From the NCBI GenBank assembly GCA_021772635.1, contig JAJFLP010000079.1, positions 1-64,000 on the forward strand: DNA of 64,000 nt. Reading direction: 5' to 3'. Shown here piece after piece: positions 13,668-54,975 of this stretch. The position numbers were made by a program, and so were the translations under genes. Below the pieces are notes generated by a model. That model saw only the letters and a program-made list of their open reading frames with translations. It had not been told where the DNA came from and did not search any database. Numbering within the stretch: position 1 is the stretch's first letter; each line of letters begins with the position of its first letter. The stretch comes from Verrucomicrobiota bacterium. GTDB lineage: Bacteria; Verrucomicrobiota; Lentisphaeria; JABSQK01; JAJFLO01.

Positions 13668-13713
13668 CGGTACGCAGCATTGAAATTAGTGAAGAAACAA
13701 GGGTTCCCGTTCG

Positions 13714-15564: not shown

Positions 15565-15580
15565 TCCCGACTAACTTAGA

Positions 15581-16780: not shown

Positions 16781-16820
16781 GTTTTCGTTGTGCAATTATT
16801 AACTATTTAGAGGTTTTTTC

Positions 16821-21463: not shown

Positions 21464-21642
21464 CCTGCATTATGCACAAATTTCGTCATGAGAATACGTA
21501 GCTAGTTTTAGATCAAAGAGTTATGGAGGTTGTCGGGGTGAAAGAATATTGAAATATTTCGAGATCCGACGTTCTCTGTAACTCGTTTATATGAAATAAG
21601 ATACGTGTTCGTAATAGAAAGTTTATGAATAATGTAGGCTAG
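21460..21642. mobile_element. MITE-like element, 183 bp, CTAG-terminated
   Basis: ctagcctgcattatgcacaaa...tttatgaataatgtaggctag inverted termini; near-identical inverted copy at 31703-31885. Confidence 0.85.
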
Positions 21643-22466
21643 TCGTCCATCCACTCGGGTCGAAAGAGCTGGTTTAGCAGCTTAGGATTTTCTACAGTGT
21701 TCGCCAGTACTCGCGACCGCGCAATAAGTTTAGGGATGAACATAATCGCGATTCCGACTCCGTACACGGCCACATACGCGCTCTCTTGCCGCACAATTAC
21801 CGCCAGCAATAAGAGGTAGAACATACATGGTTGAGAGAATAAAGCACCCAATACGGTGGTTACGAAATTGTTCCCAACGCCGTGGTCGGGTTGGGCGTCA
21901 GGACTGACGTCCTCAATCTCGGGTTTCGCCGATAACGCTTTTAGGCATAGTAAGAGTTTTACATTTTCCTGCATCTTGGTCAACGGTGTAACTAATGCGG
22001 TCGCGACTAACCCACAAACGATGACGGGTAATTTCTCGCCTCCTACGATAAAAGAAAATGTGAGGCTCCCGAAAATCAGCGGGAACAGAATCTCGTGGCC
22101 CACCATATCCAGGAAATTGCCAACCACGGAGAACTGTCTCTTATATCTGGCAAGTTCGCCATCGACGTTATCGAGTATCCACGCCAGGTACAAAATACAG
22201 ATCGCTACCAGCGATAGGGAGCGTTCGCCGTAAGCCAGAATAACCGATCCCGCTATCTGAAGTAATACCCAAAATACGGTTACGTGGGTCGGAGCTACGA
22301 AACTATCTTTTAACAGAAATGTTATCCAAATCGAAATCTTGCGAGTGATGTAAATACGTTCCCAATTCGAAATATCCCGTCTGTACTCATCTGACTGCTT
22401 TTCGACGTCCCAGCAAAGCTTTTGAAATTCTTGTATTTTCATACGTATCCAGCCTGAATAATTCAC
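21639..22466 (-). CDS. CDP-alcohol phosphatidyltransferase family protein
   Basis: WILDNVDGELARYKRQFSVVGNFLDMVGHEI (DGxxAR...GxxxD CDP-OH-P motif); TM helices; start may be ATG at 22442. Confidence 0.88.
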   Translation of the reverse strand: MNYSGWIRMKIQEFQKLCWDVEKQSDEYRRDISNWERIYITRKISIWITFLLKDSFVAPTHVTVFWVLLQIAGSVILAYGERSLSLVAICILYLAWILDNVDGELARYKRQFSVVGNFLDMVGHEILFPLIFGSLTFSFIVGGEKLPVIVCGLVATALVTPLTKMQENVKLLLCLKALSAKPEIEDVSPDAQPDHGVGNNFVTTVLGALFSQPCMFYLLLLAVIVRQESAYVAVYGVGIAIMFIPKLIARSRVLANTVENPKLLNQLFRPEWMDD

Positions 22467-31932: not shown

Positions 31933-33756
31933 TCATAACGTGGAAAAGTAATCCTCCAGGGCTACCAGAAACAGTCCCATATCATCAATGGTTAAATCTC
32001 CGATGGTGCCGATACGAAAGGTGTTCGTATCCTGTAGCTTCCCCGGGTAAATAGTAAAGCCCCGGTCTAACAGATAATCGTGCATCGCCTCGAAAGAATA
32101 TCCTGGCTTGTCAGGCTCAGCAATGGCAGTGATCAGCCTGCTTTGATGATCAACCGGTATCAAACAGTTTAATTCCAATCTCTGCAGCCCATCGACTAAT
32201 ACTTGCCAGATTGCGGTATATCGTTGATAACGGCACTCAATCCCTTCAATTTTAGTCTCGATAACTGCCTGTCTCAGTGCATATAATGTCTGCACCGGCG
32301 GGGTAAACCGCATTTGCCGATTCTTTCTCATAAAATAGTATTCCGCGTATAAATCAAGGTAATAATTACGCCGTTTGAAATCGGATGTCCTTTCCAGTTT
32401 TTCTTTCTCAGCAACGACGAAACTGACCCCGGGAAGTCCCTGGAGATTCTTATTCGATGACGCCGCCAGACATGCCACATTTTGATCGACCATATCAATA
32501 GGAAGGGCGGCATAAGAACTCATTGCATCGACCAGTAACGTTATACCGCGTCGTCGGCAGCAATCACCGATCGCGGTGAGATCGTTAACAAGTCCTGTAG
32601 TGGTTTCGTGATGAACGACGGCCAGGTACCCGATTTTATCCGTCTGCGCGTCGATTACTTTCTCTAATTCTTCCAGTTTCAGCGCCTCAGTCCAGGGACT
32701 TTTGTACTCAACCGTTGTCAAGTCGTATGCGTGCGCGATCTCGCACATACGACGGCCATAGGCACCATTTTCGATGATCAGAACCGGTCGTTCATCAACA
32801 ACCGAACTCAACATGGACTCAACCGCGGCTGTTCCAGATCCGTTTAACAGGACTGCGGTAAATCGATCAGTTGGCGCGACGAAGGCGGTAAGCTCATCTG
32901 TCAGGTAGGATAGTAAATCGCCAAACGCCTTCTCACGGGGACACTGGTCGGTGACGATTTGGCTCCGTTTAACGCTGTTGGTCGTGGTCGCCGGTCCCGG
33001 TGTATAGAGTATGGACCGTATCGGGAAGCCGATGTTCTCGGTAACATGGAGTTTCGGCGCGATCTGCGTTTTGGCGATCGACAAATGATGTTCGTCATCA
33101 ACCTCGCACCAGACGAGATTCGGTACCTTAATGATATGTATCGGAATTTCGGGAGCGAGTGCGGTTAAAACATCTTCGTAGTTTAAAAGCGGCGACCTCG
33201 AACGAAGGATGAAATCTGTTGCTTCGAGAAACGTTCTATGGGATATTCTGGATATCCCGACGAGAACGCCGTAAGGTTCTCGGATTGCGTCCCGATCTTT
33301 CGTCATTGACGTTAAGTTATATCGTTCATCAGCTTCGAGAAACACTTCGTCGCCGTAGGAAGTCTCACCGCTCGCCAGTATACAGTCGGGCCGGTTGTGA
33401 AAGATTAAAGTTTGCAACGCCAACGGTTCGTAGAGAATATCCGATTCCAGCAACAGAAAATCTTCTGTTATGAGGTTTTCAAATCGAACCAACGTCGCGG
33501 CGCTTCCCGTAGAGCTGAAGTGAGGGTTTTCGAGACACTCAATAAAAGGAAATTGAATCTTGAGTTCCTCATAAAATTCCTTCTTGAAGCCCGTACCGAC
33601 AAATATTTTTTCGATCCCGTTTGCCAGCAGATTACGGATTGAGCGCTCAATCAACGTTATTCCGTCTACAGGCAAGAACCCCTTTGGTTGGGATTCCCAT
33701 AACTTCCCGAGGCGGGTGCCGATCCCGGCAGCCAAAATAAGTGCGGTTCTGATCAT
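31933..33756 (-). CDS. PntC-PhnW-type fusion: phosphonate nucleotidyltransferase + 2-aminoethylphosphonate transaminase
   Basis: N-term LILAAGIGTRLGKLWESQPKGFLPVDGITLIERSI; C-term LYTPGPATTTNSVK...GSGTAAVESMLSSVV...ASSNKNLQGLPGVSFVVAEKEKL (PhnW-type aminotransferase). Confidence 0.85.
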   Translation of the reverse strand: MIRTALILAAGIGTRLGKLWESQPKGFLPVDGITLIERSIRNLLANGIEKIFVGTGFKKEFYEELKIQFPFIECLENPHFSSTGSAATLVRFENLITEDFLLLESDILYEPLALQTLIFHNRPDCILASGETSYGDEVFLEADERYNLTSMTKDRDAIREPYGVLVGISRISHRTFLEATDFILRSRSPLLNYEDVLTALAPEIPIHIIKVPNLVWCEVDDEHHLSIAKTQIAPKLHVTENIGFPIRSILYTPGPATTTNSVKRSQIVTDQCPREKAFGDLLSYLTDELTAFVAPTDRFTAVLLNGSGTAAVESMLSSVVDERPVLIIENGAYGRRMCEIAHAYDLTTVEYKSPWTEALKLEELEKVIDAQTDKIGYLAVVHHETTTGLVNDLTAIGDCCRRRGITLLVDAMSSYAALPIDMVDQNVACLAASSNKNLQGLPGVSFVVAEKEKLERTSDFKRRNYYLDLYAEYYFMRKNRQMRFTPPVQTLYALRQAVIETKIEGIECRYQRYTAIWQVLVDGLQRLELNCLIPVDHQSRLITAIAEPDKPGYSFEAMHDYLLDRGFTIYPGKLQDTNTFRIGTIGDLTIDDMGLFLVALEDYFSTL

Positions 33757-33803
33757 TGAAAAAGCATCTTTTAGAGTGCAAGTGGTCGGGGTTTTCGCCC
33801 GGA

Positions 33804-33995
33804 TTAGCGGTAGTCACGCATAAATTTTCGAACTTTTTTAACAGACGTCATGTCTCGCCGCGTCTCCAGTCGTAGTCCCAACCCCTTGTTAATCGCGGCG
33901 TTAATCAGGCCTTTAAGATACGAGCACGGGACACCCGTAAATATCGTGAATCCGTGTTCCTTTAATCGTCCCGTAATGGCGCTGGTTGTTAGCAT
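33804..33995 (-). pseudogene. Truncated phosphonopyruvate decarboxylase (N-terminal remnant)
   Basis: [36 protein letters not shown] matches the Ppd N-terminus (FxGVPCSxLKxLIN), but ORF is only 63 aa; start overlaps pepM stop. Confidence 0.75.
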
Positions 33996-35587
33996 GTGAA
34001 ACCACTGGCCTTCTGAAGATCCACAATCGTGTTGATGTCCAACCACGAACCACTTACGAATTGAACGGCAATTGAGGTCGTCTTCGCAAGCTCTCTCAAC
34101 AGGTCGGCAACCGTCATCTTGGGCAGATCCTCCGTTTCGCTAAGGCGCGCCATAAGGTCGGCAAGTTGGCGTGCGCCGTTTTTAGACACTTTCCAGAGTC
34201 CGACGAACTCACCCGATCGGTCTTGAATCGGGAGTTCCGTAGAAATCTCGACCATTGTAATGCTACGGGCAAAAAATGATTGAGCGTACAGGACATCTGT
34301 CCGCACCCAGTATGCTGTTCGACTTTCAGATTCACTGTGTGCATCGACGACTATCGTTACATCGGCGGGAGCGTTAAGCAAGTCGACCAACATATGCCTC
34401 TTGAAGATTATATCGCCGAAACTGATTATCGTTTCTTTGTTTAAATATTTCTTCGCACAGAATAATGAGTATGCTTCCCCGGATTCCAGGTACTGAGAAT
34501 TTTCGATTTTGATAATATTGTCAAGGTTAATCTTATCCTTTTCAAACCCGCAAACAACAATCGTCTCGTCCGTTCCTTGTCGCCTGAACGCCTCGGTTTG
34601 ATGCTGTATGATCGGTTTACCATCCACTTTCAGCATCGCTTTGGGAATATTATCAGTCAGTACGCCAAGTTCGCCCTGAGACGCTGCCAGAATGACAGTA
34701 TTCGTATCGCGTTTGCCCGTTGGCATATACTTTTTCTCCGCGATCGCGAGCTCCCGCGAATTCTGCAGTTCGAATATATGCCCAACCCCGGCGATTTTGT
34801 CCTCCACATCCAGTATCGACTGTTCCCGGTAGATGCGCCCAAGTATGTCCTCCATCGAGCTTGTTGCTGCACGTAGCGAGTGGTTTGCCCAGATGACGGT
34901 ATTGACATTGAAAGACCGGAACAAATCGGTCGGGGTCGTGTAATAAGCCGTTGGCACGAGCACGACTGGATGACAGTTGTCCCAGGCCTTCAGAAACTGT
35001 TCAATCTCGTTGAAATCTGGTTGTTTACTGTGAATTAAAATGGCATCTGCGCCCGCCTCCCGGTAAGCATACGCACGCTCGAGAGCGGCCTCAACGTCTA
35101 AGCCAGCGATCAGAGCTTCCACCCGAGCAACGACGACGAAATCGTCGTCACGCTGTGTATCTTTTGCCGCTTTAATCTTGCCACAAAACTCATCGACATC
35201 GGCTAAGCTTTGTTTCTGATTCTTCAACAATGAGTTACGTTTCGGAAACAGCTTATCTTCGATACAAACTCCGGAGATATCGCGCTGTTCCAATTTCTTG
35301 ACCAGCCGCCGGACGTTGTTAAAATCTCCATAACCGGTATCTCCGTCCAGCAAGATCGGGATATCGATAGCGTCGTTCATAAAATCTAACACCTCCAGAA
35401 TCTGTGTCCACGACGCTTCATTATTATCACGGACACCCATTGAAGCCGAAATTGTCAGGCTACTGGCCCAGATCCCTTTGAATCCGGTATTTTCAACGAT
35501 CTTTGCCGATAAGCCGTTGTGAGCCTCCATCAAAAAGTCTAATTCCGGCCCCGTGACGATTGCTCTCAGTTGTGTAGTTTTCTTCAT
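33989..35587 (-). CDS. Phosphoenolpyruvate mutase / nucleotidyltransferase fusion
   Basis: PepM motif [16 protein letters not shown] (EDKx5NS), [22 protein letters not shown]-term [36 protein letters not shown] extends to 35602 via TTG. Confidence 0.92.
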
Positions 35588-35700
35588 AGATGACTTTCCC
35601 AATATATGCCCATCGTCATTGTTTTTTTAACCGGCCATCTCCATCTGGGCGACGGCTGTTCGAAAACAAAGCCACCCCTGGGCAACAGTCGTCAGTTGAG

Positions 35701-38379
35701 CTATTTCTCGGTGTACTCCCAGTTGTCCTCGTCATAGACATCGTCACGGACCTGAACGTAGCGCTTTACGCGGAACTTCTTCTTTTGTCGCCAATCCCAG
35801 TTGCCATGTTGTGTTATTGCGTGTTCCACCACACGATTCTCTGCTGGTTTTCGTATCGGATCCTCCCCGATCCCCTCACAACCGCCGATTGTAGAGCACA
35901 ATATAGCCGCAATATCAGCATTGCTCATCAACTGCTTTGAAACGTGAAGGCTTCCCCGTTCATTGAAATCTTTGACCATCAACAATGCGAAAATAGCCTC
36001 GTGATCCCATTTCCTGCCGCGACCGCTACTCCCGTGATCGGAGGCAATGATGATTTTTGTGTTGTCGTACACGTTATTTACCTTCATCCAATCGAACCAA
36101 TCTGAAAGTGCCTGGAGCGCACATGCCATATGATAAGTGTATTCCTCATCTCCGTCCTTGTCGTACTCACCTCGTAAATAATCATCGACCGCCGGCCCGC
36201 ACCCGGCGGATTGTGAACCTCCTCGAATGGTGGCTCGGCTCCAAAAGAATTTCAGCGTCGGTTTATCAGATATCGCATTGCTGACTTCATCAAGTAAATC
36301 CAGTATCGGCCAGAATTTGAGATAGGAATTCAACATCCAGTTGGCCGTCCCGTTTTTTTGGACCTTCTCAATGTAAGAGGAATTGAATGCCGGATCATCC
36401 TCTGACGACAATAAATTCAGCAAGGGCGTGTTCTGCATAGACCATTGGGTTTTCGCAGATGAGCGGTTCAGAGTAGCGTTAATTCGTCGATAATGACAGG
36501 CTTTTACGAACCCCGGCATACTCTTAAATAGTGACAACTGCCACAGCGTCTCGTCGTAAAAACTGGCGGATATCGATGCCTCCATAGACAGCACCTTTTT
36601 CTTACGCCAATATGGTATGTACTGACCATAATGATGGACATTTACGCCGCGGTCAACTAAAAGTCGCTCAAAATCCTTGGTGATCCACTGAGGGTCTATG
36701 AAGGAAATTGAGTATCCCATCCCGCCGAAAACATGGGGATATAATGACCAGGCTTCATCAATAAATTCGCCGACCGTTTTTTCGTTATCATTATTCTTCT
36801 GACGCACCGTATATCGGTGGCCTCCGACCAGAGCGGCTGTAGAAGGTAACGTGAACCCGCCGGTTGATACCGTATTTCTAAACCACGTAAAGCCGTCAAG
36901 ACCTTCAATTAAGTCGGATCGAACCATGAGCAACTCACTCAGCAATTGTGCCGGGAATGCATCCAGTATAAACACCACGATATTCGGATGGTCTCGCGAA
37001 AAAGAAAATACCTCACCCGTGTTTTCAGGCAGCGTCGGAACTGGTTTTTGCTCCGCTGTGAGAGATCCGCGGTCAAAAAGCGCCTTGTAGTTGTGGACAA
37101 ATTTTATTGCATCCACCGACTGCAATACCAACACCACAGCCAGAAACAGCGCAACGGGTTTCACGATCTGGTGGTAGTATCTCAGGACACCTGCAAATAG
37201 ACTAATGAGCAATAGAGCTTCTATAATTTTCGATGAAAGACTCATGCCGGCGAGTACCTCTATATTGGTAAAGCTCACACCGCGAATTATACCCAGATTA
37301 TAGTCGACAGCATAGCCAAAGATGTATACGACGACAGCAACCGCTAAACTTAGCCGTGTAAGAATACTGGACAGTGGCCCGACGAACACGGTAATAAGAT
37401 ACATCCCAACACCTCCGACAAGACATTTACCGACCATCGTTACAATGTGAGTGATAAACAGGCTCTCGGAATTGATGCCGAACGAATCGGGGCTGGAATA
37501 GTAGATATACAGGGGATTGAGTACGGCGACGACATAAATTATCGCGCAGTAAAAGTAGGCGAAGGGTAGGAATCCAGGGCGGCTACCCGATTTCGAGCCG
37601 ACATCGAATATATGATCGGCTGTACGTTGGCACCAAACCTTGATATCGCTTACGAAATTTTCATTGGGTCTGTCTTTAACCTCCATTGCCGGGCTCTGCA
37701 AGTATTGCAGATTAAAGAAGTGCCCAATCCCGTTCTTCATCATCGAAAAGAGATTATTGAGTGTCCAGTAAAACACCAGGCCAGCGGACGCGCTGTAAAG
37801 AACCACAAGAAATATCAGCGCCAACACCCACAGTTGCATCTTCTCCTTGTGATCCATCCGGGCAGCGTAGACATACGCGGAAAGGATATTCACCGCGGTC
37901 ATGACGATAGGGAGAACGTTTATCGCGGTGTCGCCGAACGTCGCAAGCCGATCGGGAGCGCCCAAGTCTTTAATGAAAAGGAAACCAACACCCTCGAACG
38001 CGGGGAAGTTTAGCAGGAGATGATAGGCGGCGAAAAAGAAAGGTATCTGAATTAAGAAGCCGAAGGACACTTTAATCGGTGACAAGGGATGGTAGTTAAA
38101 TCGCCGATAGACCGCTCTGATATAAAAATACCGCTCTTGCCCTTTCGAATGTTTCTTTATCGACGAAAGCTCGGATGCCATCTGTGCGTGCTTTCCTTTA
38201 ACGTCGACTTTCCACTTCTCCGCCAGGAAATACAGTGGCAGTAAAACGGCGTTAACCAGTACGCTTAGGATCACGAGTGACACGCCGTAGCTGTCCGTGA
38301 CCGCGTACGCCGAGTCCAACGCCACTTTCATCGCCGCTTCCAGCGGAAATATAAAAATCAAATGGAGGATATGCGTCAT
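35701..38379 (-). CDS. YidC/Oxa1-like membrane domain fused to LtaS/sulfatase-like (alkaline-phosphatase superfamily) domain
   Basis: N-term YGVSLVILSVLVNAVLLPLYFLAEKWKVDVKGK...LSPIKVSFGFLIQIPFFFAAYHLL...LVFYWTLNNLFSMMKN; C-term PNIVVFILDAFPAQLL...VSTGGFTLPSTAALVGGHRY...IIIASDHGSSGRGRKWDHEAI. Confidence 0.88.
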   Translation of the reverse strand: MTHILHLIFIFPLEAAMKVALDSAYAVTDSYGVSLVILSVLVNAVLLPLYFLAEKWKVDVKGKHAQMASELSSIKKHSKGQERYFYIRAVYRRFNYHPLSPIKVSFGFLIQIPFFFAAYHLLLNFPAFEGVGFLFIKDLGAPDRLATFGDTAINVLPIVMTAVNILSAYVYAARMDHKEKMQLWVLALIFLVVLYSASAGLVFYWTLNNLFSMMKNGIGHFFNLQYLQSPAMEVKDRPNENFVSDIKVWCQRTADHIFDVGSKSGSRPGFLPFAYFYCAIIYVVAVLNPLYIYYSSPDSFGINSESLFITHIVTMVGKCLVGGVGMYLITVFVGPLSSILTRLSLAVAVVVYIFGYAVDYNLGIIRGVSFTNIEVLAGMSLSSKIIEALLLISLFAGVLRYYHQIVKPVALFLAVVLVLQSVDAIKFVHNYKALFDRGSLTAEQKPVPTLPENTGEVFSFSRDHPNIVVFILDAFPAQLLSELLMVRSDLIEGLDGFTWFRNTVSTGGFTLPSTAALVGGHRYTVRQKNNDNEKTVGEFIDEAWSLYPHVFGGMGYSISFIDPQWITKDFERLLVDRGVNVHHYGQYIPYWRKKKVLSMEASISASFYDETLWQLSLFKSMPGFVKACHYRRINATLNRSSAKTQWSMQNTPLLNLLSSEDDPAFNSSYIEKVQKNGTANWMLNSYLKFWPILDLLDEVSNAISDKPTLKFFWSRATIRGGSQSAGCGPAVDDYLRGEYDKDGDEEYTYHMACALQALSDWFDWMKVNNVYDNTKIIIASDHGSSGRGRKWDHEAIFALLMVKDFNERGSLHVSKQLMSNADIAAILCSTIGGCEGIGEDPIRKPAENRVVEHAITQHGNWDWRQKKKFRVKRYVQVRDDVYDEDNWEYTEK

Positions 38380-38380
38380 T

Positions 38381-38563
38381 CTAGCCTGACCTATGCTTGA
38401 ATTTCGTTGCGAGAGCGCTCAGTCTTCTTGAAATCGAGGAGTTATGAAGGTTGTGAGGGCGAAGGAATATAGATATATTTTGAGATCTCAGGTTCTTCAT
38501 AACTCATTTAGTTCGAGGATAATCCGTGCTCGGAGTAGAAAGTTCATGCATAGGTCAGGCGAG
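38381..38563. mobile_element. MITE-like element, 183 bp
   Basis: ctagcctgacctatgcttgaa...ttcatgcataggtcaggcgag inverted termini. Confidence 0.82.
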
Positions 38564-39799
38564 TTCCTTCATAATCTGGAGGAGCTGCTCCGCGGCGGTC
38601 TCTCCTGCATTGCCGAAGTTATACACGTATTTTTCTCTCAGCTTGTCCAAATCAATGGGACTCTGATCGCTGACCAGTTTACGCAGTATCGCGGGCAGCT
38701 CGTCAAAATCCGTTTCATTGAGCGGGTGCCCGACCTGGTTTTGGATAAATAGTTCGTCAATATAATCCGGGATATATTCACCTTCGAAGCCGTCGAAGTT
38801 GAGTTCACAATCGACGGTTACAACGGGCTTTTTCAGGAGAAATACGCAATCGAATACAATCGCGGAAAAATCGGTTATCACGATATCGGACTCCGCTAGT
38901 ACCGCCGCGGGTGACGGTGCGGTATCAATCGTCACGTCTCGGTATTCGCGAAGCTCCGATTTTATTTCGTTAAATAATTCGATTTGCGAGACGAGTGTCT
39001 GCGGATGCGGTCGAAATATGACCTTAAATTCGGGGTTGTTTAACAAGGCCCGGAAGAAATCTATCCCGAAGCGGGTGATCGATGCGTTTACTCCCCATGA
39101 CGGCGCGACAAGTACGGTAATCTCCCCATCCTTTTTCGCAGGCGGGGTCGTCTTATCACCGAGCATGCTATCGAAGTATGTAAGACCGGTCTGAAGAAGC
39201 AGCTTTCGCGGGGTGCCACGGGCCTCTTCGAGTTTTCTAATGCTATCGACCTGGTGAGGACCGGAACACAGAACCGAGTCGAAGTAGTCGAAGGCGAAAC
39301 GTTGAAACGTCAGTATTTCGCCTGACGTATGCATAATATGCGCGTAGTGATCTACGTTCTTCGATCGACGTAGATGGAAGATATCCAGTTGCGGTGTGGT
39401 CATCGCCACGATTTTCGCACTGATATTATTCAGGTAGGCGGCCAACCGATAATGACCGCCGATACATTTGGTAAAGACGTGTTCTAACTCACAATCTAAA
39501 CCGGGGTCATTTTCGTCGGACGAGATATAGACGCACGGCACCGCCCTTTCATTCAAGGCTTTAATCACGGGAGCGAATACGCGCCAGTAGTGCCCGCCCT
39601 CCGAGTAAAAAACAATTTCCGCGCCCGGGATAGTCTCGAATTTCGCCGCAACCGTGCCGAAAATTACAGCAGCGAGTCTGTAGTAAGCACCGCGGACGGC
39701 ATACAGCATAGAGCTCACGAGACCGATAATTGCGTAAATCAGCATACTTCCGGTACCGGGATCGATATAGGCAAGATTGTAGAGTGGTGTGCTATTCAT
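38555..39799 (-). CDS. CDP-glycerol glycerophosphotransferase (TagB/SpsB)-like
   Basis: IVFYSEGGHYWRVFAPVIKALNERAVPCVYISSDENDPG...VLVAPSWGVNAS..FKVIFRPHPQT...VTIDTAPSPAAVLAESDIVITDFSAIVFDCVFLLKKPVV. Confidence 0.82.
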   Translation of the reverse strand: MNSTPLYNLAYIDPGTGSMLIYAIIGLVSSMLYAVRGAYYRLAAVIFGTVAAKFETIPGAEIVFYSEGGHYWRVFAPVIKALNERAVPCVYISSDENDPGLDCELEHVFTKCIGGHYRLAAYLNNISAKIVAMTTPQLDIFHLRRSKNVDHYAHIMHTSGEILTFQRFAFDYFDSVLCSGPHQVDSIRKLEEARGTPRKLLLQTGLTYFDSMLGDKTTPPAKKDGEITVLVAPSWGVNASITRFGIDFFRALLNNPEFKVIFRPHPQTLVSQIELFNEIKSELREYRDVTIDTAPSPAAVLAESDIVITDFSAIVFDCVFLLKKPVVTVDCELNFDGFEGEYIPDYIDELFIQNQVGHPLNETDFDELPAILRKLVSDQSPIDLDKLREKYVYNFGNAGETAAEQLLQIMKELA

Positions 39800-40116
39800 C
39801 GATTGGGCGCTTAGCTAAATCACAGGATTCATCAAGAGATCTTCAATACCTGAAAGTGCAGAATCCGACACCGTTTCACGAATTGATAAAGAACTTGTGG
39901 GTACGGAGCAGGGCTTACATTCGGACAAATATTATTGGATCAACCTCAAGGCAGCGGAGAGCCCTACCCGATCGGCAATTTCCGGCCAGAAGAGGAGAGC
40001 ACAGACAGTCTGTTGAGATATTAACTTACGTAGCGGCTAACTAGAGATTCGGGTTAAGTAATGACGGCTTGGGCTTTTTCGGCGTAATCGATCCGCGACC
40101 CGATTTCGGCGGAATT

Positions 40117-40208
40117 ATACCAACAATCGCGGAGTTTTCGAAATCCGCGAGAGAATCTACTCCTTGAGTTCGTCGCCGATGTTCGAAAATTTGACTGCCT
40201 GCAGTTTA
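40117..40208. repeat. ~93-bp TATAC-ended intergenic element
   Basis: tataccaacaatcgcggagttttcgaaatccgcgagag...gttcgaaaatttgactgcctgcagttta. Confidence 0.8.
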
Positions 40209-40224
40209 GCCTGAATTAATCAGT

Positions 40225-40992
40225 TTAGACCCGAAAAGTGTCGGCCGACCGGGCGTCCGCGGCTTGATTGGGCGGGTAGCTTTTCCACTTGTCCGTATAA
40301 TAGGCTTCACGATGGTCGCCTGCGGATTCGCGGTTAAACGTAAGGAAGATATTTCGCCGGTAACGGTTGCTGGTATTGGCCGGCGAACCGTGTGGAATAT
40401 ACGAATCAAAGACAACGACATCACCGGGCTCGAGTTCCAGTACCTCGTATTCATCTGCGGACAGATCAGCCATGTCATCGTCTGATAACGGCTCCCAGGT
40501 CTCTGTCATCAATTCTTTTCGATAATCTCCAGTTTTCATGATACTCATAGCCGCGTTCTCGCGCGTATTCGGATCGACCGCGATTACCATAGTCAGAAAA
40601 TAATCGCAATATGTACTCCAACCTGCCGCCTGATCCTGGTGAAGACTATCGGCTCTGCCTCCTGGCGGCTTATTATTGACCTTGTCTTTAAACAACACCG
40701 GCCGCTCGCCAAGCAATTGCTGCAAACACTGCAGGGGCTTGTCACCCATCAGCAACTCCTGCAGCTCGGGATGGTAGTCGCCTACGATGTGCTCTACCCT
40801 CAGAAGCACACTTGCACCGGTGAGCTCGCTTCGCTCGTAATACCTAGCCTCCTCTCCCGGAAGCACCGTTTTTGACTCGAGCGTATCCAGACGATCTGAA
40901 ATGGTCGATATCGTTTTAGCGTCGAAGAAGTTTCTAAGTACAATGAATCCCAAGTCCCGAAATTTCTGCATCTCGTCAGTATCAATTGTCAT
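40225..40992 (-). CDS. Phytanoyl-CoA dioxygenase (PhyH) family Fe(II)/2OG oxygenase
   Basis: FRDLGFIVLRNFFDAKTISTISDRLDTL...LHQDQAAGWSTYCDYFLTMVIAVDPNTRENAAMSI...ELEPGDVVVFDSYIPHGSPANTSNRYRRNIFLTFN. Confidence 0.88.
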   Translation of the reverse strand: MTIDTDEMQKFRDLGFIVLRNFFDAKTISTISDRLDTLESKTVLPGEEARYYERSELTGASVLLRVEHIVGDYHPELQELLMGDKPLQCLQQLLGERPVLFKDKVNNKPPGGRADSLHQDQAAGWSTYCDYFLTMVIAVDPNTRENAAMSIMKTGDYRKELMTETWEPLSDDDMADLSADEYEVLELEPGDVVVFDSYIPHGSPANTSNRYRRNIFLTFNRESAGDHREAYYTDKWKSYPPNQAADARSADTFRV

Positions 40993-42080: not shown

Positions 42081-44666
42081 CTATGGGAAATAAAGGCCGG
42101 AATCGGCTAGATGCTGAAGAACGAACTGCCGACGATTGGGGAGCCAATCCTTACCAACGGATCCGTCGTAACCGCTTTGGTCATCAAAGCCATCGATCAC
42201 TGGCTTCATGATCATCGCCAACCTCTTAAACTCTGCAGTAATTTTCCCGTCAGTTAATGCACCACCGCCCAAAAAATGGTATTTTACGCGGCGGGAGAAA
42301 AGGTTTCGAAACGGGTTGTCTACCGTGTGTCGGATAGCGACCAACTCGACATCGAGCGAAAAATCCGAGCTGGAAAGATTACGGTTATGCCCTTGGATAC
42401 TGATCACATTCCAACCCGGTTTAAGTAGGGGAATGTGAGCGCTGATGTCGAAAACCTCTGGTCCATTCGCCTCGTGCTCTGTACGAGAAAGTTGGTCGTA
42501 CGCCGGAAATCGACCGCTGCGATCCAGTCCAGCCGTTCGCATTACTTCATGACCGTTGATGTAGGCAACGAAGCTATCGTCGTAGTCCGCATTTAAGAAT
42601 AGTTGTTGAAATTCGGGGTCTTCGTCGACATGAAACTTCTTTCGGAGGTAGACCGAGCTGTAATTCATTCTCATGTCCTCCAGAATCGTCGCGTCGTCGC
42701 TGTCACCGTATCCAAAGCCTGCAGTGCCGGTGGGCCAAAGCGAGTCGTCGTAGTCGAGCTTCAGCCAAGCACTGGCAACCGTCGACGGCTCCTGTGTGCC
42801 TTTAAGATACCGCCACTCATCGCTCGTTTCCACGAGCACCGTGCAGTCCGGTCCGGAGATAAGCGCACGAAATAAACGTGGAATATCCGTTCCATATTTG
42901 TTGTATAGCGGCTTAATTCTGAATAGGTCCGAAATAATGTTGTCGTGCGATGGCGTTCGGCGCGCCCGCCCGAATGCGCCTTCAGCGTCCCATACCATGA
43001 AATCAAACTTTCCCGCGGGTTTACGTCTCCGAACTGCTGCCCAGTTATTTTGTGGCCAATCATGGGTTCCGGCATATATGTTCAATAAGAGATAGTCAAC
43101 AAAATTGGTTACATTGATCTTGTCGCTAATCCGGTCGTAATGGTCGCGGTTGGTTAGAAATTGACGCGGGATCAATGACATCAACTCAAGCCACGCGTCG
43201 AGGTCTCCATTTACAACGTTTCGATGCTGCCTGATCACGTCCCAGCGTTCCGAGGTCCCGCGTAAGGAGTTCAGGTAATCCTCATCAATTCTCTCTGTAA
43301 TATTGTAGTAGCCCTTGTATTCACCATTGATTAGCAGATTAGCAAAGGTCCCGAGGGCACTTTGATATCCCATCGCATCCCATAGCCGTCTCGTTAACTC
43401 ATCGCGGACAAACGGATTCTCTTGATCGTCAACACCGGCTCGGAGGACGACTTTATTAAGCGCTGCCGGACGCGCCCCGGGAATAAACACTGACGATAAC
43501 GTCGGAGTTCCGTACTCCGGTCGCAAATATAGTCGATATGAAAGCTTGCTGTCTCTGCAGGTTAACCTCCTCGTATTGTTGCTCCCACTCAAGCGAATAC
43601 CGCAATCGATAGCAAAATCGTGACCGTCCGTCGAGTTAAAGTACTCAACGGAGACCGATCTTTCCCACGAGCGACCGCGATTGATCGGGTTAAAGTATTC
43701 CGGGTATGGATGGTCCCGCCGGTACCAACGCGAACAGTCGCCGTTAACCCGTGTGTTGTCGCTCATACCGGCGATTCCAGTTGGCCCGACCAGGTTTTCT
43801 GTATCGGTCGCAATCGATACCACGGGAAGACTGCTTAATAAACGACCCTGATCGATTGAATAGGTCCGGGTGGTTACATCAAATGTTGCAAAATTCTCCC
43901 TGAATACAGCCGCTCTTAACACCTTCGACTCTTGGATTTCAATAGGGGTCTTATAGGCGAATCCGGTGCGGGCGGTTGGTGCGCTTCCGTCCGTTGTATA
44001 CCGTATGTTCGCAACTCGATCATCGGTTGATAACGTTACCCGTAGCGGACGCGCATAAATCCCATGCGGTTCACTAAATTCGACGCGACCGGTAAAATCG
44101 ATGTAAGAATTTGTGTTATTCGGAGCCCCGGGCGTCGGCGGAGAAAAGAAACGAAACGTTGAACTCAATTCGGAGTAGCCGTAAGAGTAATCTGGTCGTT
44201 GCGGCGGATACCGTGGCGAAATAAAACTGACAAGATTTCCCTGCCGACTATTGTCAATCACCCCAAGAAACTCTCCCGCACCTGACAACTTAAAATTAGT
44301 ATGTAAGTTCTTTGAGTAGCGGTCGGTCCGGTCCTTCCCGCTTGCAAAAACAATCAGATACGAACGCGCCGGTATGGCCACATCTGGAAAGACCCATTTG
44401 CGAGCATCCATTATATTATCCGTTAGCGACCAACCTCTTAATGGCACGGCCTTTTCTGAACGGTTATAGAGTTCGATCCAGTCTGAGGCCTCGCCATCCT
44501 CGTCCTTGAGCCCGTGGCTATTGAACGCCATGAATTCATTTATGATAATATTCTGCGCGTGCCCGCACCATGTAGTGACCAAACAGCAGCAGATCGTGAA
44601 TAGGGTAAGTTGTCGAAAAATTGTCATTAGATTCAGAACGCGATCCGGCCAGGCCGCTCTGTGCAC
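42081..44666 (-). CDS. CotH-kinase-like protein with lamin-tail and chitobiase-like domains
   Basis: NIIINEFMAFNSHGLKDEDGEASDWIELYNRSEKAVPLRGWSLTDN (LTD); VANIRYTTDGSAPT (CHB_HEX_C); FVRDELTRRLWDAMGYQSA...INGEYKGYYNITERIDEDYL (CotH). Confidence 0.88.
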   Translation of the reverse strand: MHRAAWPDRVLNLMTIFRQLTLFTICCCLVTTWCGHAQNIIINEFMAFNSHGLKDEDGEASDWIELYNRSEKAVPLRGWSLTDNIMDARKWVFPDVAIPARSYLIVFASGKDRTDRYSKNLHTNFKLSGAGEFLGVIDNSRQGNLVSFISPRYPPQRPDYSYGYSELSSTFRFFSPPTPGAPNNTNSYIDFTGRVEFSEPHGIYARPLRVTLSTDDRVANIRYTTDGSAPTARTGFAYKTPIEIQESKVLRAAVFRENFATFDVTTRTYSIDQGRLLSSLPVVSIATDTENLVGPTGIAGMSDNTRVNGDCSRWYRRDHPYPEYFNPINRGRSWERSVSVEYFNSTDGHDFAIDCGIRLSGSNNTRRLTCRDSKLSYRLYLRPEYGTPTLSSVFIPGARPAALNKVVLRAGVDDQENPFVRDELTRRLWDAMGYQSALGTFANLLINGEYKGYYNITERIDEDYLNSLRGTSERWDVIRQHRNVVNGDLDAWLELMSLIPRQFLTNRDHYDRISDKINVTNFVDYLLLNIYAGTHDWPQNNWAAVRRRKPAGKFDFMVWDAEGAFGRARRTPSHDNIISDLFRIKPLYNKYGTDIPRLFRALISGPDCTVLVETSDEWRYLKGTQEPSTVASAWLKLDYDDSLWPTGTAGFGYGDSDDATILEDMRMNYSSVYLRKKFHVDEDPEFQQLFLNADYDDSFVAYINGHEVMRTAGLDRSGRFPAYDQLSRTEHEANGPEVFDISAHIPLLKPGWNVISIQGHNRNLSSSDFSLDVELVAIRHTVDNPFRNLFSRRVKYHFLGGGALTDGKITAEFKRLAMIMKPVIDGFDDQSGYDGSVGKDWLPNRRQFVLQHLADSGLYFP

Positions 44667-44840
44667 CAGGCACCATACTTTTCGGCCGCAGCCGCGATCA
44701 AATTATAATGCTTTCTGTTAGATTTTTCTCACGGATTGGACTATTATGCTATACATAACCAATTTCCAGTTGGGCTTCGCAAATCCTAAGAATCAAATTC
44801 TTCGACATCATTATTGAAGCCCTGTATTCATCATCTCAGT

Positions 44841-44932
44841 TATACCGAAAATCATCAGGTTTTCGAAATATCGTTCGAATTCCCTCGCGTGGTTAGTTGA
44901 GAGTTATCCAAAAATTGTACTGCTTGCAGTAT
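44841..44932. repeat. ~93-bp TATAC-ended intergenic element
   Basis: tataccgaaaatcatcaggttttcgaaatatcgttcgaattccctcgcgtggttagttgagagttatccaaaaattgtactgcttgcagtata. Confidence 0.88.
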
Positions 44933-44966
44933 ATCAACTGAGAAAAAGAGGATCCCAATCGACTTT

Positions 44967-45653
44967 ATGAACGCATTCAAACTCAGCATCCGGAAATTCG
45001 TAACGGACGCAGTTAATGAGGTCCAGTTTTTCGACTTTCTCCTGCATCTGATAATGGCAGTTATTCTCGGAGTGATCCTGCAACAACTTTATATTCGATG
45101 TGGCAACTCGGTATCGAATCGTCGAAAGACAGCGTCAAACTTCGTATTACTAGCATGCGTTACGATGATCGTTATTTCGATTGTTAAGTCGTCACTGGCG
45201 TTGTCTCTCGGGTTGGTCGGAGCATTGTCAATTGTTAGGTTTCGAGCAGCAATCAAGGAACCGGAGGAGCTGACCTACCTGTTCATTGCGATTTCGATCG
45301 GCTTAGGCATGGGTGCCGGGCAACCCGGGATTACCTGTACCGGATTCGGGGTGATTTCTTTACTTATCCTGCCCAGATTTTTTTCCAGAAAATTACATTT
45401 GGATAACGGCTTTCTGTTAACAGTGTCTAACGAGTCAAGTGATGGTATCAAACTCAGCGAGATTACCGAAGTATTGGAAAAATATTGCAGCAACGTCCGG
45501 CTGAATCGCTACGACTATCCCGGGACTCGATCAGATTTCGCGTTTCACGTCCAGATTGATGACACGAACAGACTCGACTCGATCAGAACGGATCTTGTAG
45601 CAATCAACGATCAGTTTCACGTCGCCTGCCTGAACACTGATGATTTTGTGTAA
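44967..45653 (+). CDS. DUF4956 membrane protein
   Basis: SSLALSLGLVGALSIVRFRAAIKEPEELTYLFIAISIGLGMGAGQ. Confidence 0.88.
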   Translation: MNAFKLSIRKFVTDAVNEVQFFDFLLHLIMAVILGVILQQLYIRCGNSVSNRRKTASNFVLLACVTMIVISIVKSSLALSLGLVGALSIVRFRAAIKEPEELTYLFIAISIGLGMGAGQPGITCTGFGVISLLILPRFFSRKLHLDNGFLLTVSNESSDGIKLSEITEVLEKYCSNVRLNRYDYPGTRSDFAFHVQIDDTNRLDSIRTDLVAINDQFHVACLNTDDFV

Positions 45654-45948
45654 TTTACTCCTCTCAATAGGGAATTCTATTTAAGCAATTTCGAGAGTAT
45701 CGTTGTCCATGAATGCAGACTGGGGGCGGCCGAATTTTCGGGCATCGTAAATGGTACCGCCGACGGGATTCCGACGGGATTTTAATCGGCGTCGCATCGG
45801 TCATAGTACACGCTGTACCTCAAAAAAGGCGGAAGACACTCGGGCAACGCCGGGTCGTAATCTCCGAAATAATTAGTACACTCCTGGAACCACTCCGCTC
45901 AACAATCCCGGCCCCTCGTGCCCATTAACACGCGTAGAAACGGCTACT

Positions 45949-46641
45949 ATGGATACCCAGTCACACTATCGGTTCGAACGAAAGTATTCGACAACCAGAT
46001 ACTCAAGTCACCAAGTTGAAGCTCTCGTCAACCATCATCCGGCGTTATTTCGGGAGATATTTCATCCCCGCTCGGTAAACAACATGTATTGGGATACAAT
46101 TGGCCTGGGTGCCTATTTCGAACACACTATCGGATCCTATCAACGAACAAAGACACGGGTGCGATGGTATGGAGATCTGTACGGGACGACGAAGTCGCCG
46201 AAACTGGAGTTGAAAAAGAAGAACACTAATGTCGGATACAAAAAACGATACCCTCTTGAGAACTTTCATTTGCAGGCAGGGGATCTCGCCTCGTACCTGT
46301 ACCAGGAGATTGTGCAGGACGGCGTTCACCCGGAGGTGAAGCAACGACTCGCAAGTCTGACTCCAACGTTAATAAATAGTTATAAACGCAAGTACTTTCG
46401 CTCGTTATGCGGTCGTTTTCGGATTACAATCGATTCAGATGTTTCCTGTTATCCGTTACTGGGGGTAGCCTCATTGCCTGTAAACGGCATCAAGAATTCC
46501 CGATTAGTTATAATAGAACTCAAGTACTCACATCTGGATGACCTCCTCGCCACTGAGATTGCAGATAGCCTTCCGTTTACATTAACAAGAAATTCTAAAT
46601 ATATAAATGGCCTCCAGTTGCTATACAATTGGGTCCGATAA
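45949..46641 (+). CDS. VTC-domain (polyphosphate polymerase-like) protein
   Basis: RFERKYSTTRYSSHQVEALVNHHP...NNMYWDTIGLGAYFEHTIGSYQRTKTRVRWYGD...PKLELKKK...LVIIELKY. Confidence 0.87.
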   Translation: MDTQSHYRFERKYSTTRYSSHQVEALVNHHPALFREIFHPRSVNNMYWDTIGLGAYFEHTIGSYQRTKTRVRWYGDLYGTTKSPKLELKKKNTNVGYKKRYPLENFHLQAGDLASYLYQEIVQDGVHPEVKQRLASLTPTLINSYKRKYFRSLCGRFRITIDSDVSCYPLLGVASLPVNGIKNSRLVIIELKYSHLDDLLATEIADSLPFTLTRNSKYINGLQLLYNWVR

Positions 46642-52271: not shown

Positions 52272-54926
52272 TTAGTTTCCACTACCCGAACCACTACCGG
52301 ACCCATTCCCGGACCCATTCCCGGAACCATTCCCGGAGCCGTTGCCGGACCCATTCCCGGACCCATTCCCGGAACCATTGCCGGAGCCGTTGCCGGAGCC
52401 GCTGCCGGAACCGCTGCCGGAATCAGTAGCACATCCCGAACCACAGTTGCTGGCGGAGTCATTAGAGCCGTACTCAGTTACCGTTGAGCCCACAGCGGTG
52501 ATACACACATACCAATGCCCCATTGACGAGCCTCCGGAGTGCCCATTAAACAGTTTGAGCGTGATCGTCCCGCCACAGATTTCGACGGGTTTGTTGCCCA
52601 GATCATATTTCTCTCCGTTCAACACAATCGCATTCCCATTGCTCTTCGGACGAACGAATACCCGGGTAGCGGCGCCGTCATACGACGTTACCGTACCGTT
52701 CTTCAAGTCATCCCGGCCAAATGAGCCAGATCCGGTCTCAACACAGAACTGATTATTATTGCTATTACCAGGATTGATATTGATTTCAGCCAGGTTCTCT
52801 CCGTCAACCGTCCCGCAGGTTCCTGCGGCATACGCAAAGGCGCTCACCGCGATCGTCCCGGTAGCGCTTTCTGACAACCCGGTGCTGGAGTCGGTGATCG
52901 TGTAAGAGAAGACTGTATCGCCTTCAAACCCGGTTTCGCCAGCTTCCGAATCGAACGCCGGAGGCGTATACGTAACGGTCGTACCGTTAGTACTCACCGC
53001 GCCGGAGCCGGAGCTTAGAGATGCTGCTGTGACCGACAGATTACTGCCGGTGTCATTGGCCATGACATCTATGGTAACCGCTGATTCATTGTCAGTCGAT
53101 CCGGTATCATTGTTCGCAACCGGTGCGACAGCCGGTGCCGCACCGACAGTGACGCTTACCGTTGCATTCCCGGACGTATCCGTGCCATCCGTTGCCTTGT
53201 ACGTGAACGTGTCCGAACCGCTGAAACCACTATTCGGTGTATACGTCACATTCGACCCGCTGCCCGCAACTGATCCGTTACTCCCCTGGGTTACCGCAGA
53301 AATACTTAGAGAGTCACCGTCCGCGTCAGTGTCATTAGCCAGTACAGCAATCGAGACTACCGTTGCATAGTCCGTTGACGCACTGTCGGCAACAGCAACA
53401 GGGGCATTATTTGTCACAGCCGCTGCGGTCACCGTAATCGTGACTTGACCCTCATCATCGTTAAGTGATGGATCAGTCGCTTTGTACTTGAACTTATCCT
53501 CTCCCGTAAAGTCGGCGTTTGACGTGTAAGAAAATGCCCCGGTCGCTAATAACGTCAGCGTCCCATCATCGACGTCATTACTTAATACTGCCGTTAGCGC
53601 GTCGTTTTCAGGATCGGAATCATTTGTCAAGACGCCGTCCGCCGAAACCGTCAGGGTAGCCCCGGATTCTACGGTATACGTATCGTCGTTCGCCGTGGGT
53701 TTTTCGTTTTCGTCATTCTGGAACGTAACTACAACACGCATGTGATCGTTCGCCGTGACGATAAATGAGCTGACCGCACCGATAGCTGTCAGTCCGTAGG
53801 TCTCGCCGTCCTCGATATCGTCCGCGTCATCGTCGTAATCGCTCTGCGCACCGACGTACACGCCGGCAATTACCTTGCCGTCTTCCGGTGTGACCGTGAA
53901 TTGTTTGCTGCCGGCCTCCTGAACGAGACTAACGCCTTCCGAACTGATACTTCCATGATTTTCCGCTGACGCCCAAATAGTGACGAAACAGGTGTAATCC
54001 TTTATGAACCCCCTGTAAGCATCGCCGATATCCCGGTCTTCCGTGTGAGATATGGTCTTGGTAATCCCGTCGGTGTTGGTAAACTCGCCTGTTCCCCATT
54101 TACCTTCCATTTTATCGAGCTTATTAATATTGAGATTAGTGCCATCGGTGAAGTACACTTTATGCGTGTCAATGTTGACGTTCGCATCGCCGTCGGTGCT
54201 CACATCGGTGATTTCATAGTACGGGCAGCACTCCTCCAACGAAAAGTTCTCCGTAGTAGTGTCGTCCTCCTCACCGGAAAATGTGATCGTCGTGCCTTCG
54301 CAGTCGCTCGATCCGGTCACGATATCCGTAGCCGGTTGGCGATAGACCTCCAAACTCACCACCAGCGTCTCTCGTGCGTCCGCCGGTTTCTCGAACGGCC
54401 AGGCGATCTCTCCGTAGATTGTCGCATTTACGCTGCCGTCAGCATTCTCCGTTACGGTTTTCCATGTCCGAATGACCGACTGGAAATCAACCGCACTGTC
54501 CGTCAGTTGCTGGGCGAGGAACAATCCAGAGTTAGTCGCGCTACTGATACTCATCGACGAATCCGCGGCGATAATCACATTGCCTGAAGAGTACAACGCG
54601 TTTCCAGTAGCGAACTGGACACCGTTCTCTGCCGAAGCGGAAGCCTTCGTACCGTTTTTGAAGTAATTGACGAACTCCCAGTTACTATTGATTTGACTCG
54701 CGCTGTACCGCATCCAATTCTCAAGTAGATCGCCAGCGAAAGCCCGTGACCGCGACTCCTTCTGTGAGTCTAAACCGAGCGGGAGGATGCTAATCGCCAC
54801 AACCATCCCAACGATTATGATGACCAGACCGAACATTACCTCGATCATATTCAGGTGATGTTTAATCGTACCGTGTCCGGCGCGATTCCTCTTGGTTCTT
54901 GTTACATTTCCGATTCCTGTTAACAT
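52272..54926 (-). CDS. Giant pilin-like surface protein A (N-terminal prepilin helix, cadherin/Big_9-like repeats, Gly-Ser-Asn tail)
   Basis: HLNMIEVMFGLVIIIVGMVVAISILPLGLDSQKESRSRAFAGDLLENWMRYSASQ; PTANDDTYTVESGATLTV...GVLTNDSDPENDALTAVL, NAPVAVADSASTDYATVVSIAVLANDTDADGDSLSI; tail (GSGNGS)n; RBS before ATG 54926. Confidence 0.85.
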   Translation of the reverse strand: MLTGIGNVTRTKRNRAGHGTIKHHLNMIEVMFGLVIIIVGMVVAISILPLGLDSQKESRSRAFAGDLLENWMRYSASQINSNWEFVNYFKNGTKASASAENGVQFATGNALYSSGNVIIAADSSMSISSATNSGLFLAQQLTDSAVDFQSVIRTWKTVTENADGSVNATIYGEIAWPFEKPADARETLVVSLEVYRQPATDIVTGSSDCEGTTITFSGEEDDTTTENFSLEECCPYYEITDVSTDGDANVNIDTHKVYFTDGTNLNINKLDKMEGKWGTGEFTNTDGITKTISHTEDRDIGDAYRGFIKDYTCFVTIWASAENHGSISSEGVSLVQEAGSKQFTVTPEDGKVIAGVYVGAQSDYDDDADDIEDGETYGLTAIGAVSSFIVTANDHMRVVVTFQNDENEKPTANDDTYTVESGATLTVSADGVLTNDSDPENDALTAVLSNDVDDGTLTLLATGAFSYTSNADFTGEDKFKYKATDPSLNDDEGQVTITVTAAAVTNNAPVAVADSASTDYATVVSIAVLANDTDADGDSLSISAVTQGSNGSVAGSGSNVTYTPNSGFSGSDTFTYKATDGTDTSGNATVSVTVGAAPAVAPVANNDTGSTDNESAVTIDVMANDTGSNLSVTAASLSSGSGAVSTNGTTVTYTPPAFDSEAGETGFEGDTVFSYTITDSSTGLSESATGTIAVSAFAYAAGTCGTVDGENLAEININPGNSNNNQFCVETGSGSFGRDDLKNGTVTSYDGAATRVFVRPKSNGNAIVLNGEKYDLGNKPVEICGGTITLKLFNGHSGGSSMGHWYVCITAVGSTVTEYGSNDSASNCGSGCATDSGSGSGSGSGNGSGNGSGNGSGNGSGNGSGNGSGNGSGNGSGSGSGSGN

Positions 54927-54975
54927 GATATTTTCTCCTTTTGGTTTTTGGATTTCCTGTATTCCTGTTTCAATT

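What the first reader, a model, noticed from the sequence alone, without database searches (positions are those of the whole stretch)
31933..40992. Candidate phosphonate-decorated envelope polymer cluster with unusual fusions
Minus-strand cluster encodes PepM ([10 protein letters not shown] motif) fused to a nucleotidyltransferase, a PntC-type nucleotidyltransferase fused to PhnW, a YidC-LtaS/sulfatase-like fusion, a TagB/SpsB-like glycerophosphotransferase and a PhyH-type dioxygenase. Family knowledge: PepM makes phosphonopyruvate, PhnW interconverts AEP and phosphonoacetaldehyde, PntC activates AEP as CMP-AEP. Inference: the cluster makes, activates, possibly hydroxylates, and transfers a phosphonate onto a surface glycan or teichoic-like polymer, with the fusion protein as candidate transferase.
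Basis: partly seen in the sequence, partly recalled or inferred. Interest (0 to 1): 0.78.

Follow-up and report, generated by a model that had tools for sequence, protein, structure and literature searches.

The report
Phosphonate-coating cluster with YidC-fused transferases
A bacterial gene cluster makes and activates a carbon-phosphorus compound and carries, beside it, a membrane machine of three domain types (a cytosolic teichoic-type transferase, a relative of the YidC protein insertase, and an external LtaS-like transferase) that recurs with these genes in distant bacteria and probably puts the compound on the cell surface, a step for which no enzyme is known.

Summary
Minus-strand genes at 31933-40992 encode PntC-PhnW (full-length relative of the solved T. 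denticola enzyme), PepM-nucleotidyltransferase, YidC fused to an LtaS-like domain, a Glyphos_transf (TagB-type) protein and a PhyH dioxygenase. The PepM and PntC-PhnW fusions are known. The PepM-fused nucleotidyltransferase lacks the catalytic Arg, and Ppd lies on another contig.

The new part is the transferase half. The YidC-LtaS fusion is a real family, found in 6 of 196 clostridial genomes; 5 of those 6 carry pepM (13 of 196 overall, p=3e-6). One clostridial operon has the window's set: YidC-LtaS, TagB-like, PntC-like, PhnW, PepM, plus Ppd. The same three domains are also fused as YidC-TagB (20 of 80 loci have pepM, most within 2 kb) and as LtaS-YidC-TagB. Other copies sit beside choline-kinase or glycerol-phosphate-activation genes, so the module is not phosphonate-specific; it appears to handle whichever CDP/CMP-activated head group is made next door. 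In 18 of 18 YidC-LtaS fusions the groove's basic residue is replaced by Asn, Gln or Ser, while the transferase-type Thr is invariant.

Best reading: surface decoration with (hydroxy-)aminoethylphosphonate, with YidC coupling an inner to an outer transferase. The YidC role is inferred.

The parts
31933..33756 (-). Gene A: PntC-type CTP:AEP cytidylyltransferase (residues 1-240, 33037-33756) fused to PhnW/AEPT transaminase (residues 246-607, 31933-33021)
   Evidence: TIGR03301 over cut-off; full-length match to 6pd1 E=7e-170; GTR and PK nucleotide-binding motifs and SSNK PLP site present
33989..35602 (-). Gene B: PEP mutase PepM (residues 1-290, 34733-35602) fused to a PF12804 nucleotidyltransferase-like domain with an altered nucleotide loop (residues 296-537, 33989-34717)
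   Evidence: TIGR02320 over cut-off; 1m1b E=1e-117; [10 protein letters not shown]; loop AASQGELG lacks the catalytic Arg
35701..38379 (-). Gene C: YidC-like domain (residues 1-230, 37690-38379) fused to an LtaS-like protein with its own transmembrane helices and an external alkaline-phosphatase-superfamily domain (residues 241-892, 35701-37659)
   Evidence: 60KD_IMP 80 bits; 18-member fusion family with D473, T510, D781, H782 invariant and groove residue N/Q/S; LtaS 2w5q profile match 4.5e-13; AF2 core pLDDT >90, Foldseek to PbgA/LtaP/LtaS
38555..39799 (-). Gene D: TagB-type CDP/CMP-X:acceptor transferase (Glyphos_transf) with N-terminal AYIDPGTGSML element; candidate cytosolic phosphonate transferase
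   Evidence: PF04464; RPHPQ at residue 263 and TDFS at residue 309, conserved with the YidC-TagB fusions; adjacent to C in Clostridia too
40225..40992 (-). Gene E: PhyH-type Fe(II)/2OG dioxygenase, candidate phosphonate hydroxylase
   Evidence: PF05721; best NCBIfam match methylphosphonate hydroxylase 110 bits, sub-cut-off; HQD at residue 118, His201 and the Arg-rich RYRR consistent with the Fe/2OG site

Best explanation
The cluster makes 2-aminoethylphosphonate (AEP), possibly 1-hydroxylated, activates it as CMP-AEP and attaches it to an envelope polymer. Steps: PepM (B) makes phosphonopyruvate; Ppd from the second locus on contig C74 decarboxylates it (in trans, inferred); PhnW (A) aminates it; PhyH (E) may hydroxylate it; PntC (A) makes CMP-AEP. 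The TagB-type enzyme (D), in the cytosol, uses the CMP-activated head group; the LtaS-like domain of C, outside the cytoplasmic membrane, passes the group through its invariant Thr to the final acceptor. The YidC-like domain sits between the two and couples them across the membrane, most simply by letting a head-group-bearing lipid carrier cross. Shown here: gene content, families, active-site conservation, recurrent fusion and operon linkage. Inferred: substrates, acceptor, order of the two transfers, and the role of the YidC domain.
For: Same gene set in one clostridial operon, L207: C, D, NTP, PhnW, PepM, Ppd contiguous on one strand; L205: C, NTP-PepM, Fe-ADH, Ppd, D in one operon. Kiritimatiellae L060: Ppd, PntC, PhnW, PepM, YidC-TagB fusion, LtaS-like. 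Triple fusions LtaS-YidC-TagB, L157 (1200 aa) and L155 (1466 aa, with pepM). pepM in 5 of 6 genomes with the YidC-LtaS fusion against 13 of 196, p=3e-6; in 20 of 80 YidC-TagB loci against 17 of 289 genomes of the window's phylum that have pepM anywhere. Thr nucleophile in 46 of 50 LtaS-like proteins (Ser in 4, Cys in none) and in 18 of 18 YidC-LtaS fusions. No TagD over cut-off in the window's genome, so CDP-glycerol is an unlikely donor. The fusion orders fit YidC N-out/C-in: TagB stays inside and the LtaS-like domain outside. Purified E. coli YidC scrambles lipids (PMC10491306).
Against: No biochemistry. Ppd is not in the cluster and the MAG is 91% complete. The module also occurs without pepM (60 of 80 YidC-TagB loci; several D-C pairs). 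Window C lacks a His near residue 722 that the other YidC-LtaS fusions keep, so this copy could be impaired. Enrichment figures do not correct for relatedness of genomes. The closest whole-fold match, PbgA, is, from general knowledge, a non-catalytic lipid/LPS-binding member of the superfamily.
Confidence: 0.6

Rival explanations
1. The TagB-like and LtaS-like proteins build an ordinary glycerol- or sugar-phosphate (teichoic-type) backbone, and the phosphonate genes supply only a substituent added by some other transferase.
For: TagB and LtaS families act on glycerol phosphate; one YidC-TagB copy in L103 lies beside a true TagD (TIGR01518 205 bits).
Against: No TagD over cut-off in the window's genome; copies without pepM often lie beside choline-kinase or CobD-like genes with their own cytidylyltransferase, so the neighbour, not glycerol, seems to set the head group; no other candidate transferase inside the conserved operon L207.
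Confidence: 0.2
2. The CMP-activated phosphonate goes to a phosphonolipid through the CDP-alcohol phosphotransferase at 21639-22466, and genes C and D belong to an unrelated envelope pathway.
For: CDP-OH_P_transf gene 10 kb away; similar genes near pepM in L066, L068 and L075.
Against: C and D are contiguous with the phosphonate genes here and in Clostridia, whereas the CDP-alcohol gene is distant and separated by genes on the other strand.
Confidence: 0.12
3. The YidC-like domain is still a membrane-protein insertase or chaperone tethered to its client, and plays no part in moving glycan or lipid intermediates.
For: It scores above the TIGR03592 subfamily cut-off (85.4 vs 84.3) and keeps the YidC fold in the model.
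Against: The genome has another YidC (C27); the domain forms its own clade (support 1.0); the groove residue described as strictly conserved and positive (PMC8920935) is Asn/Gln/Ser in 18 of 18, though that paper shows the charge itself is not always needed; repeated fusion to both transferase types fits a pathway role better.
Confidence: 0.3
4. The LtaS-like part of C is a degenerate, non-catalytic sensor like PbgA/YejM, and D alone transfers the phosphonate.
For: Best Foldseek hit is PbgA; two His positions conserved in most LtaS-like relatives are not His in C.
Against: Asp473, Thr510, Asp781 and His782 are invariant across the fusion family.
Confidence: 0.15

Closest known systems
Phosphonyl tailoring (Pnt) pathway of Treponema denticola, Olsenella uli and Atopobium rimae (Rice et al. 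2019, PMC6697681)
   Same: PepM with fused nucleotidyltransferase, PntC fused to AEPT, CMP-AEP as activated intermediate, surface destination proposed
   Different: Downstream transfer step was left unknown there (LicD-like proteins or glycosyltransferases noted); no YidC, TagB-type or LtaS-like module was described
Lic phosphocholine pathway (LicA, LicC, LicD)
   Same: CTP activation of a small zwitterionic head group followed by transfer to an envelope glycan; related YidC-TagB loci carry cytidylyltransferase-choline kinase fusions
   Different: No LicD was identified in the window; transferase candidates are TagB-type and LtaS-like with a YidC domain
Wall teichoic acid polymerases TagB/TagF (Glyphos_transf, PF04464)
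   Same: Family and RPHP/TD[FWY]S motifs
   Different: No TagD in the genome; linked to CMP-phosphonate synthesis; in relatives fused to YidC
LtaS / EptA-type Thr-nucleophile transferases of the alkaline phosphatase superfamily
   Same: N-terminal transmembrane helices, external domain, Thr nucleophile and metal ligands
   Different: Fused to a YidC domain; very divergent in sequence; auxiliary His residues changed
YidC/Oxa1/Alb3 insertases
   Same: 60KD_IMP fold and length
   Different: Separate clade, groove Arg/Lys replaced by Asn/Gln/Ser, fused to polymer-tailoring enzymes

Membership tests
PEP mutase (PepM) | EDKxxxxxNS motif and TIGR02320 above cut-off | tested here: met
PntC-AEPT fusion | LicC-type nucleotidyltransferase with GxGTR...PK loop followed by PhnW; full-length match to 6pd1 | tested here: met
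Active nucleotidyltransferase (PepM-fused domain) | Catalytic Arg of the GxGTR loop | tested here: not met
   AASQGELG in the window and AATQGKFG in L094
Surface phosphonate (Pnt) pathway | pepM, ppd, PntC and AEP transaminase in one genome | tested here: met
   ppd is on contig C74, the rest in the window
Surface phosphonate (Pnt) pathway | C-P compound on the cell surface | not testable with these tools
   needs 31P NMR
YidC insertase | Conserved YidC/Oxa1 C-terminal domain (TIGR03592) | tested here: met
   85.4 bits against a cut-off of 84.3
[quoted passage not shown]
   Asn43 in the window; N/Q/S in 18 of 18 fusions; R or K in all 28 canonical YidC examined
Sulfatase (PF00884, formylglycine type) | Cys (or Ser) nucleophile in a C/S-x-P/A-x-R motif | tested here: not met
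   Thr at this position in 18 of 18 fusions
LtaS/EptA-type transferase | Thr nucleophile with Asp and Asp-His metal ligands | tested here: met
   D473, T510, D781, H782
LtaS/EptA-type transferase | Transfer activity from a lipid donor | not testable with these tools
   biochemistry needed
CDP-glycerol glycerophosphotransferase (TagB/TagF) | Glyphos_transf domain with RPHP motif | tested here: met
CDP-glycerol glycerophosphotransferase (TagB/TagF) | CDP-glycerol supply by TagD in the genome | tested here: not met
   no match over cut-off, genome 91% complete
AEP/phosphonate hydroxylase (PhnY/PhnY* type PhyH) | Curated family score | tested here: inconclusive
   110 bits against a cut-off of 500, but the best NCBIfam match by far

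The most novel reading that the evidence does not exclude
The YidC fold has been recruited out of protein insertion into a dedicated transmembrane conduit of a general head-group tailoring machine. A cytosolic TagB-type enzyme loads a CMP/CDP-activated group (phosphonate, phosphocholine, glycerol phosphate) onto a lipid carrier, the YidC-like groove lets the loaded carrier cross the membrane, and an LtaS-like domain outside moves the group to a surface polymer. Gene duplication and exchange of the activating genes next door set which group is shown.
Probability: 0.3. Interest if true: 0.9.

Novelty: new variant of a known kind. Interest (0 to 1): 0.74.

Why it matters
The enzymes that carry activated phosphonates to the bacterial surface were left unidentified by the study that defined PntC (PMC6697681). 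Here the same two candidate transferases recur, fused in three different orders and operon-linked to pepM, in Lentisphaeria-type, Kiritimatiellae and Firmicutes genomes, including cultured gut isolates. That makes the missing step directly testable. It would also give the YidC/Oxa1 superfamily a role outside protein insertion and fit the finding that insertases scramble lipids. I found no description of these fusions in the open-access library searched; subscription papers were not searchable.

Tried and rejected
A genome-contig scan with the single C protein found nothing because its patterns were too specific; the scan was repeated with YidC-TagB fusions. A phylum search with whole C returned only canonical YidC proteins, and its C-terminal domain alone gave only two distant hits; the family was found only after locating L104. 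'Ordinary sulfatase' was rejected because the nucleophile is Thr. 'Fusion is an assembly artefact' was rejected: 17 loci with 860-930 aa open frames. 'Module exclusive to phosphonates' was rejected. No PhyH relative turned up in the related loci searched by tblastn, so hydroxylation has no comparative support. PHROGs gave nothing for the 182-aa and 249-aa membrane proteins. In L090 the 972-aa frame that appears to join PepM to YidC-TagB is only an open upstream frame, not a fusion, because PepM is in a different frame (judged from coordinates).
Full report
CHECK OF THE OBSERVATION. Pfam and NCBIfam give: A, NTP_transf_3 + PhnW; B, PepM + NTP_transf_3; C, 60KD_IMP (YidC) with no Pfam hit on its C-terminal two thirds; D, Glyphos_transf; E, PhyH. 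PepM has [10 protein letters not shown] and scores above the TIGR02320 cut-off. A aligns over residues 1-605 with 6pd1, the T. denticola PntC-AEPT enzyme, at E=7e-170. That paper (PMC6697681) shows this fusion making CMP-AEP and reports that about a third of PepM proteins are fused to PF12804. The phosphonate half is therefore known.

REFINEMENTS. The PF12804 domain fused to PepM in B has AASQGELG where active relatives have the GxGTR loop; its closest relative, L094, has AATQGKFG, so it is probably not a normal nucleotidyltransferase. No Ppd gene lies in the window. The genome has one clear Ppd, on contig C74, next to a PF01467-PepM fusion and a PhnW-methyltransferase fusion. AEP synthesis therefore needs this second locus in trans, or a gene missing from the 91% complete MAG. 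E has the Fe/2OG-type residues (HQD at 118, His201, RYRR) and is nearest to methylphosphonate hydroxylase, but well below that family's cut-off.

THE TRANSFERASE HALF RECURS. Of 17 PepM-bearing genomes among 289 of the window's phylum, one locus (L060, a Kiritimatiellae MAG by contig match) has Ppd, PntC, PhnW, PF01467-PepM, a 630-aa YidC-TagB fusion and an LtaS-like protein in a row. In the window YidC is fused to the LtaS-like protein instead. A scan of about 85,000 species genomes with the YidC-TagB fusions found 379 relatives; the best 80 loci are from Kiritimatiellae, Lentisphaerae, a MAG labelled Planctomycetia, Clostridia and Coriobacteriia. Of these 80, 20 have pepM within the fetched flanks, 14 of them within 1.1 kb, and 48 have an LtaS-like protein. 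Two loci carry all three domains in one protein, LtaS-YidC-TagB: L157 (1200 aa) and L155 (1466 aa, followed by nucleotidyltransferase, PepM and Ppd).

THE WINDOW'S OWN ARRANGEMENT ALSO RECURS. L104 (Clostridiales MAG RUG10998) has a TagB-like + YidC-LtaS pair in the window's gene order. A profile of three such fusions finds 17 loci in 6 of 196 genomes of that class, all with 860-930 aa open frames. PepM is present in 13 of the 196 and in 5 of the 6; hypergeometric p=3e-6, not corrected for kinship. Locus L207 is a tight operon: YidC-LtaS 8623-11361, TagB-like 11354-12646, nucleotidyltransferase 12612-13484, PhnW 13494-14645, PepM 14657-15952, Ppd 15984-17153, then a polysaccharide flippase-family gene. 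L205 has YidC-LtaS, nucleotidyltransferase-PepM, Fe-ADH, Ppd and TagB-like in one operon. L094 has a 62%-identical PepM with fused NTP domain, Ppd, PntC, PhnW, YidC-TagB and the start of an LtaS-like gene.

NOT ONLY PHOSPHONATES. Copies of the module without pepM sit beside cytidylyltransferase-choline kinase fusions (L098, L114, L121, L206), nucleotidyltransferase-CobD-like fusions (L139, L142, L208) or, in L103, a true glycerol-3-phosphate cytidylyltransferase. Within single genomes (G417, G439) paralogous pairs lie beside different activating genes. The simplest reading is a head-group-tailoring module whose cargo is set by its neighbours. In the window those neighbours make CMP-AEP, and no TagD passes its cut-off in the genome, which argues against CDP-glycerol as donor.

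ACTIVE SITES AND TOPOLOGY. In the LtaS-like family the nucleophile position is Thr in 46 of 50 and Ser in 4, never Cys. In 18 YidC-LtaS fusions Asp473, Thr510, Asp781 and His782 (window numbering) never vary. A profile matches LtaS best among solved structures, and the AlphaFold model has a confident alkaline-phosphatase-type core whose structural matches include PbgA, LtaP and LtaS. The auxiliary His residues of the wider family are changed in this subfamily, and a His kept in the other fusions is absent from the window protein. The YidC-like domains of the two fusion types form separate, fully supported clades distinct from canonical YidC. The groove residue is R or K in 28 canonical YidC, K (once R) in YidC-TagB and N, Q or S in all YidC-LtaS. 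Assuming the usual YidC topology (N-out, C-in) and five helices before the LtaS-type domain, every fusion order keeps TagB inside and the LtaS-like domain outside. This is inference from family knowledge.

MECHANISM. Established here: gene content, conserved operon and fusion linkage, and active-site conservation. Inferred: CMP-AEP as donor for D; a loaded lipid or glycan intermediate; the LtaS-like Thr as relay on the outside; and the YidC-like domain as the part that couples the two sides. E. coli YidC and other Oxa1-family proteins scramble lipids in liposomes (PMC10491306), which makes a carrier-crossing role possible. PMC8920935 describes the groove's positive residue as strictly conserved but shows the charge itself can be dispensable, so its loss does not by itself exclude insertion activity.

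TAXONOMY. The contig length of G259, which is in the window's class, equals that of SUWA01000004.1 (Lentisphaerae SIG86), and that of G254 equals CACWVU010000009.1 (RUG10963). The window is therefore probably from a Lentisphaeria-type MAG. This is inference.

VERDICT.

Noticed in passing
L103:7576-8712 and 9896-11032: Two YidC-TagB genes in opposite orientation share a 95% identical 1.14-kb inverted repeat around a tyrosine recombinase (8942-9850); one gene leads into the phosphonate operon, the other into tagD. Possibly an invertible switch between head groups.
   Followed up: partly
G000 contig C74, L006:9502-14000: Second phosphonate locus: PhnW fused to a methyltransferase, PF01467-PepM fusion and Ppd. 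The methyltransferase fusion suggests an N-methylated aminophosphonate.
   Followed up: partly
window 21639-22466 (-): CDP-alcohol phosphotransferase 10 kb from the cluster; could use CMP-AEP to make a phosphonolipid.
   Followed up: no
window 42081-46641: CotH protein with lamin-tail domain, then DUF4956 and VTC-domain genes on the other strand: a CotH/DUF4956/VTC (polyphosphate-type) neighbourhood next to the cluster.
   Followed up: no
window 546-2261 (+): RpiB-type isomerase fused to serine hydroxymethyltransferase in one 571-aa protein.
   Followed up: no
window 52272-55064 and 56343-60119 (-): Two related large proteins with a pilin-like N-terminal segment, repeated bacterial Ig/cadherin-like domains and long Gly-Ser tails.
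   Followed up: no
window 38555-39799 N-terminus; LtaS-like proteins in L119, L135, L146 and others: The AY[IV]DP[SG] element at the start of gene D is shared with 23 of 49 LtaS-like proteins of YidC-TagB loci, another sign of part exchange within the module.
   Followed up: partly
L162:12231-14240: Single protein joining PF12804, PF01467 and PepM, followed by an iron alcohol dehydrogenase and Ppd and no PhnW: a likely 2-hydroxyethylphosphonate version of the cluster.
   Followed up: partly
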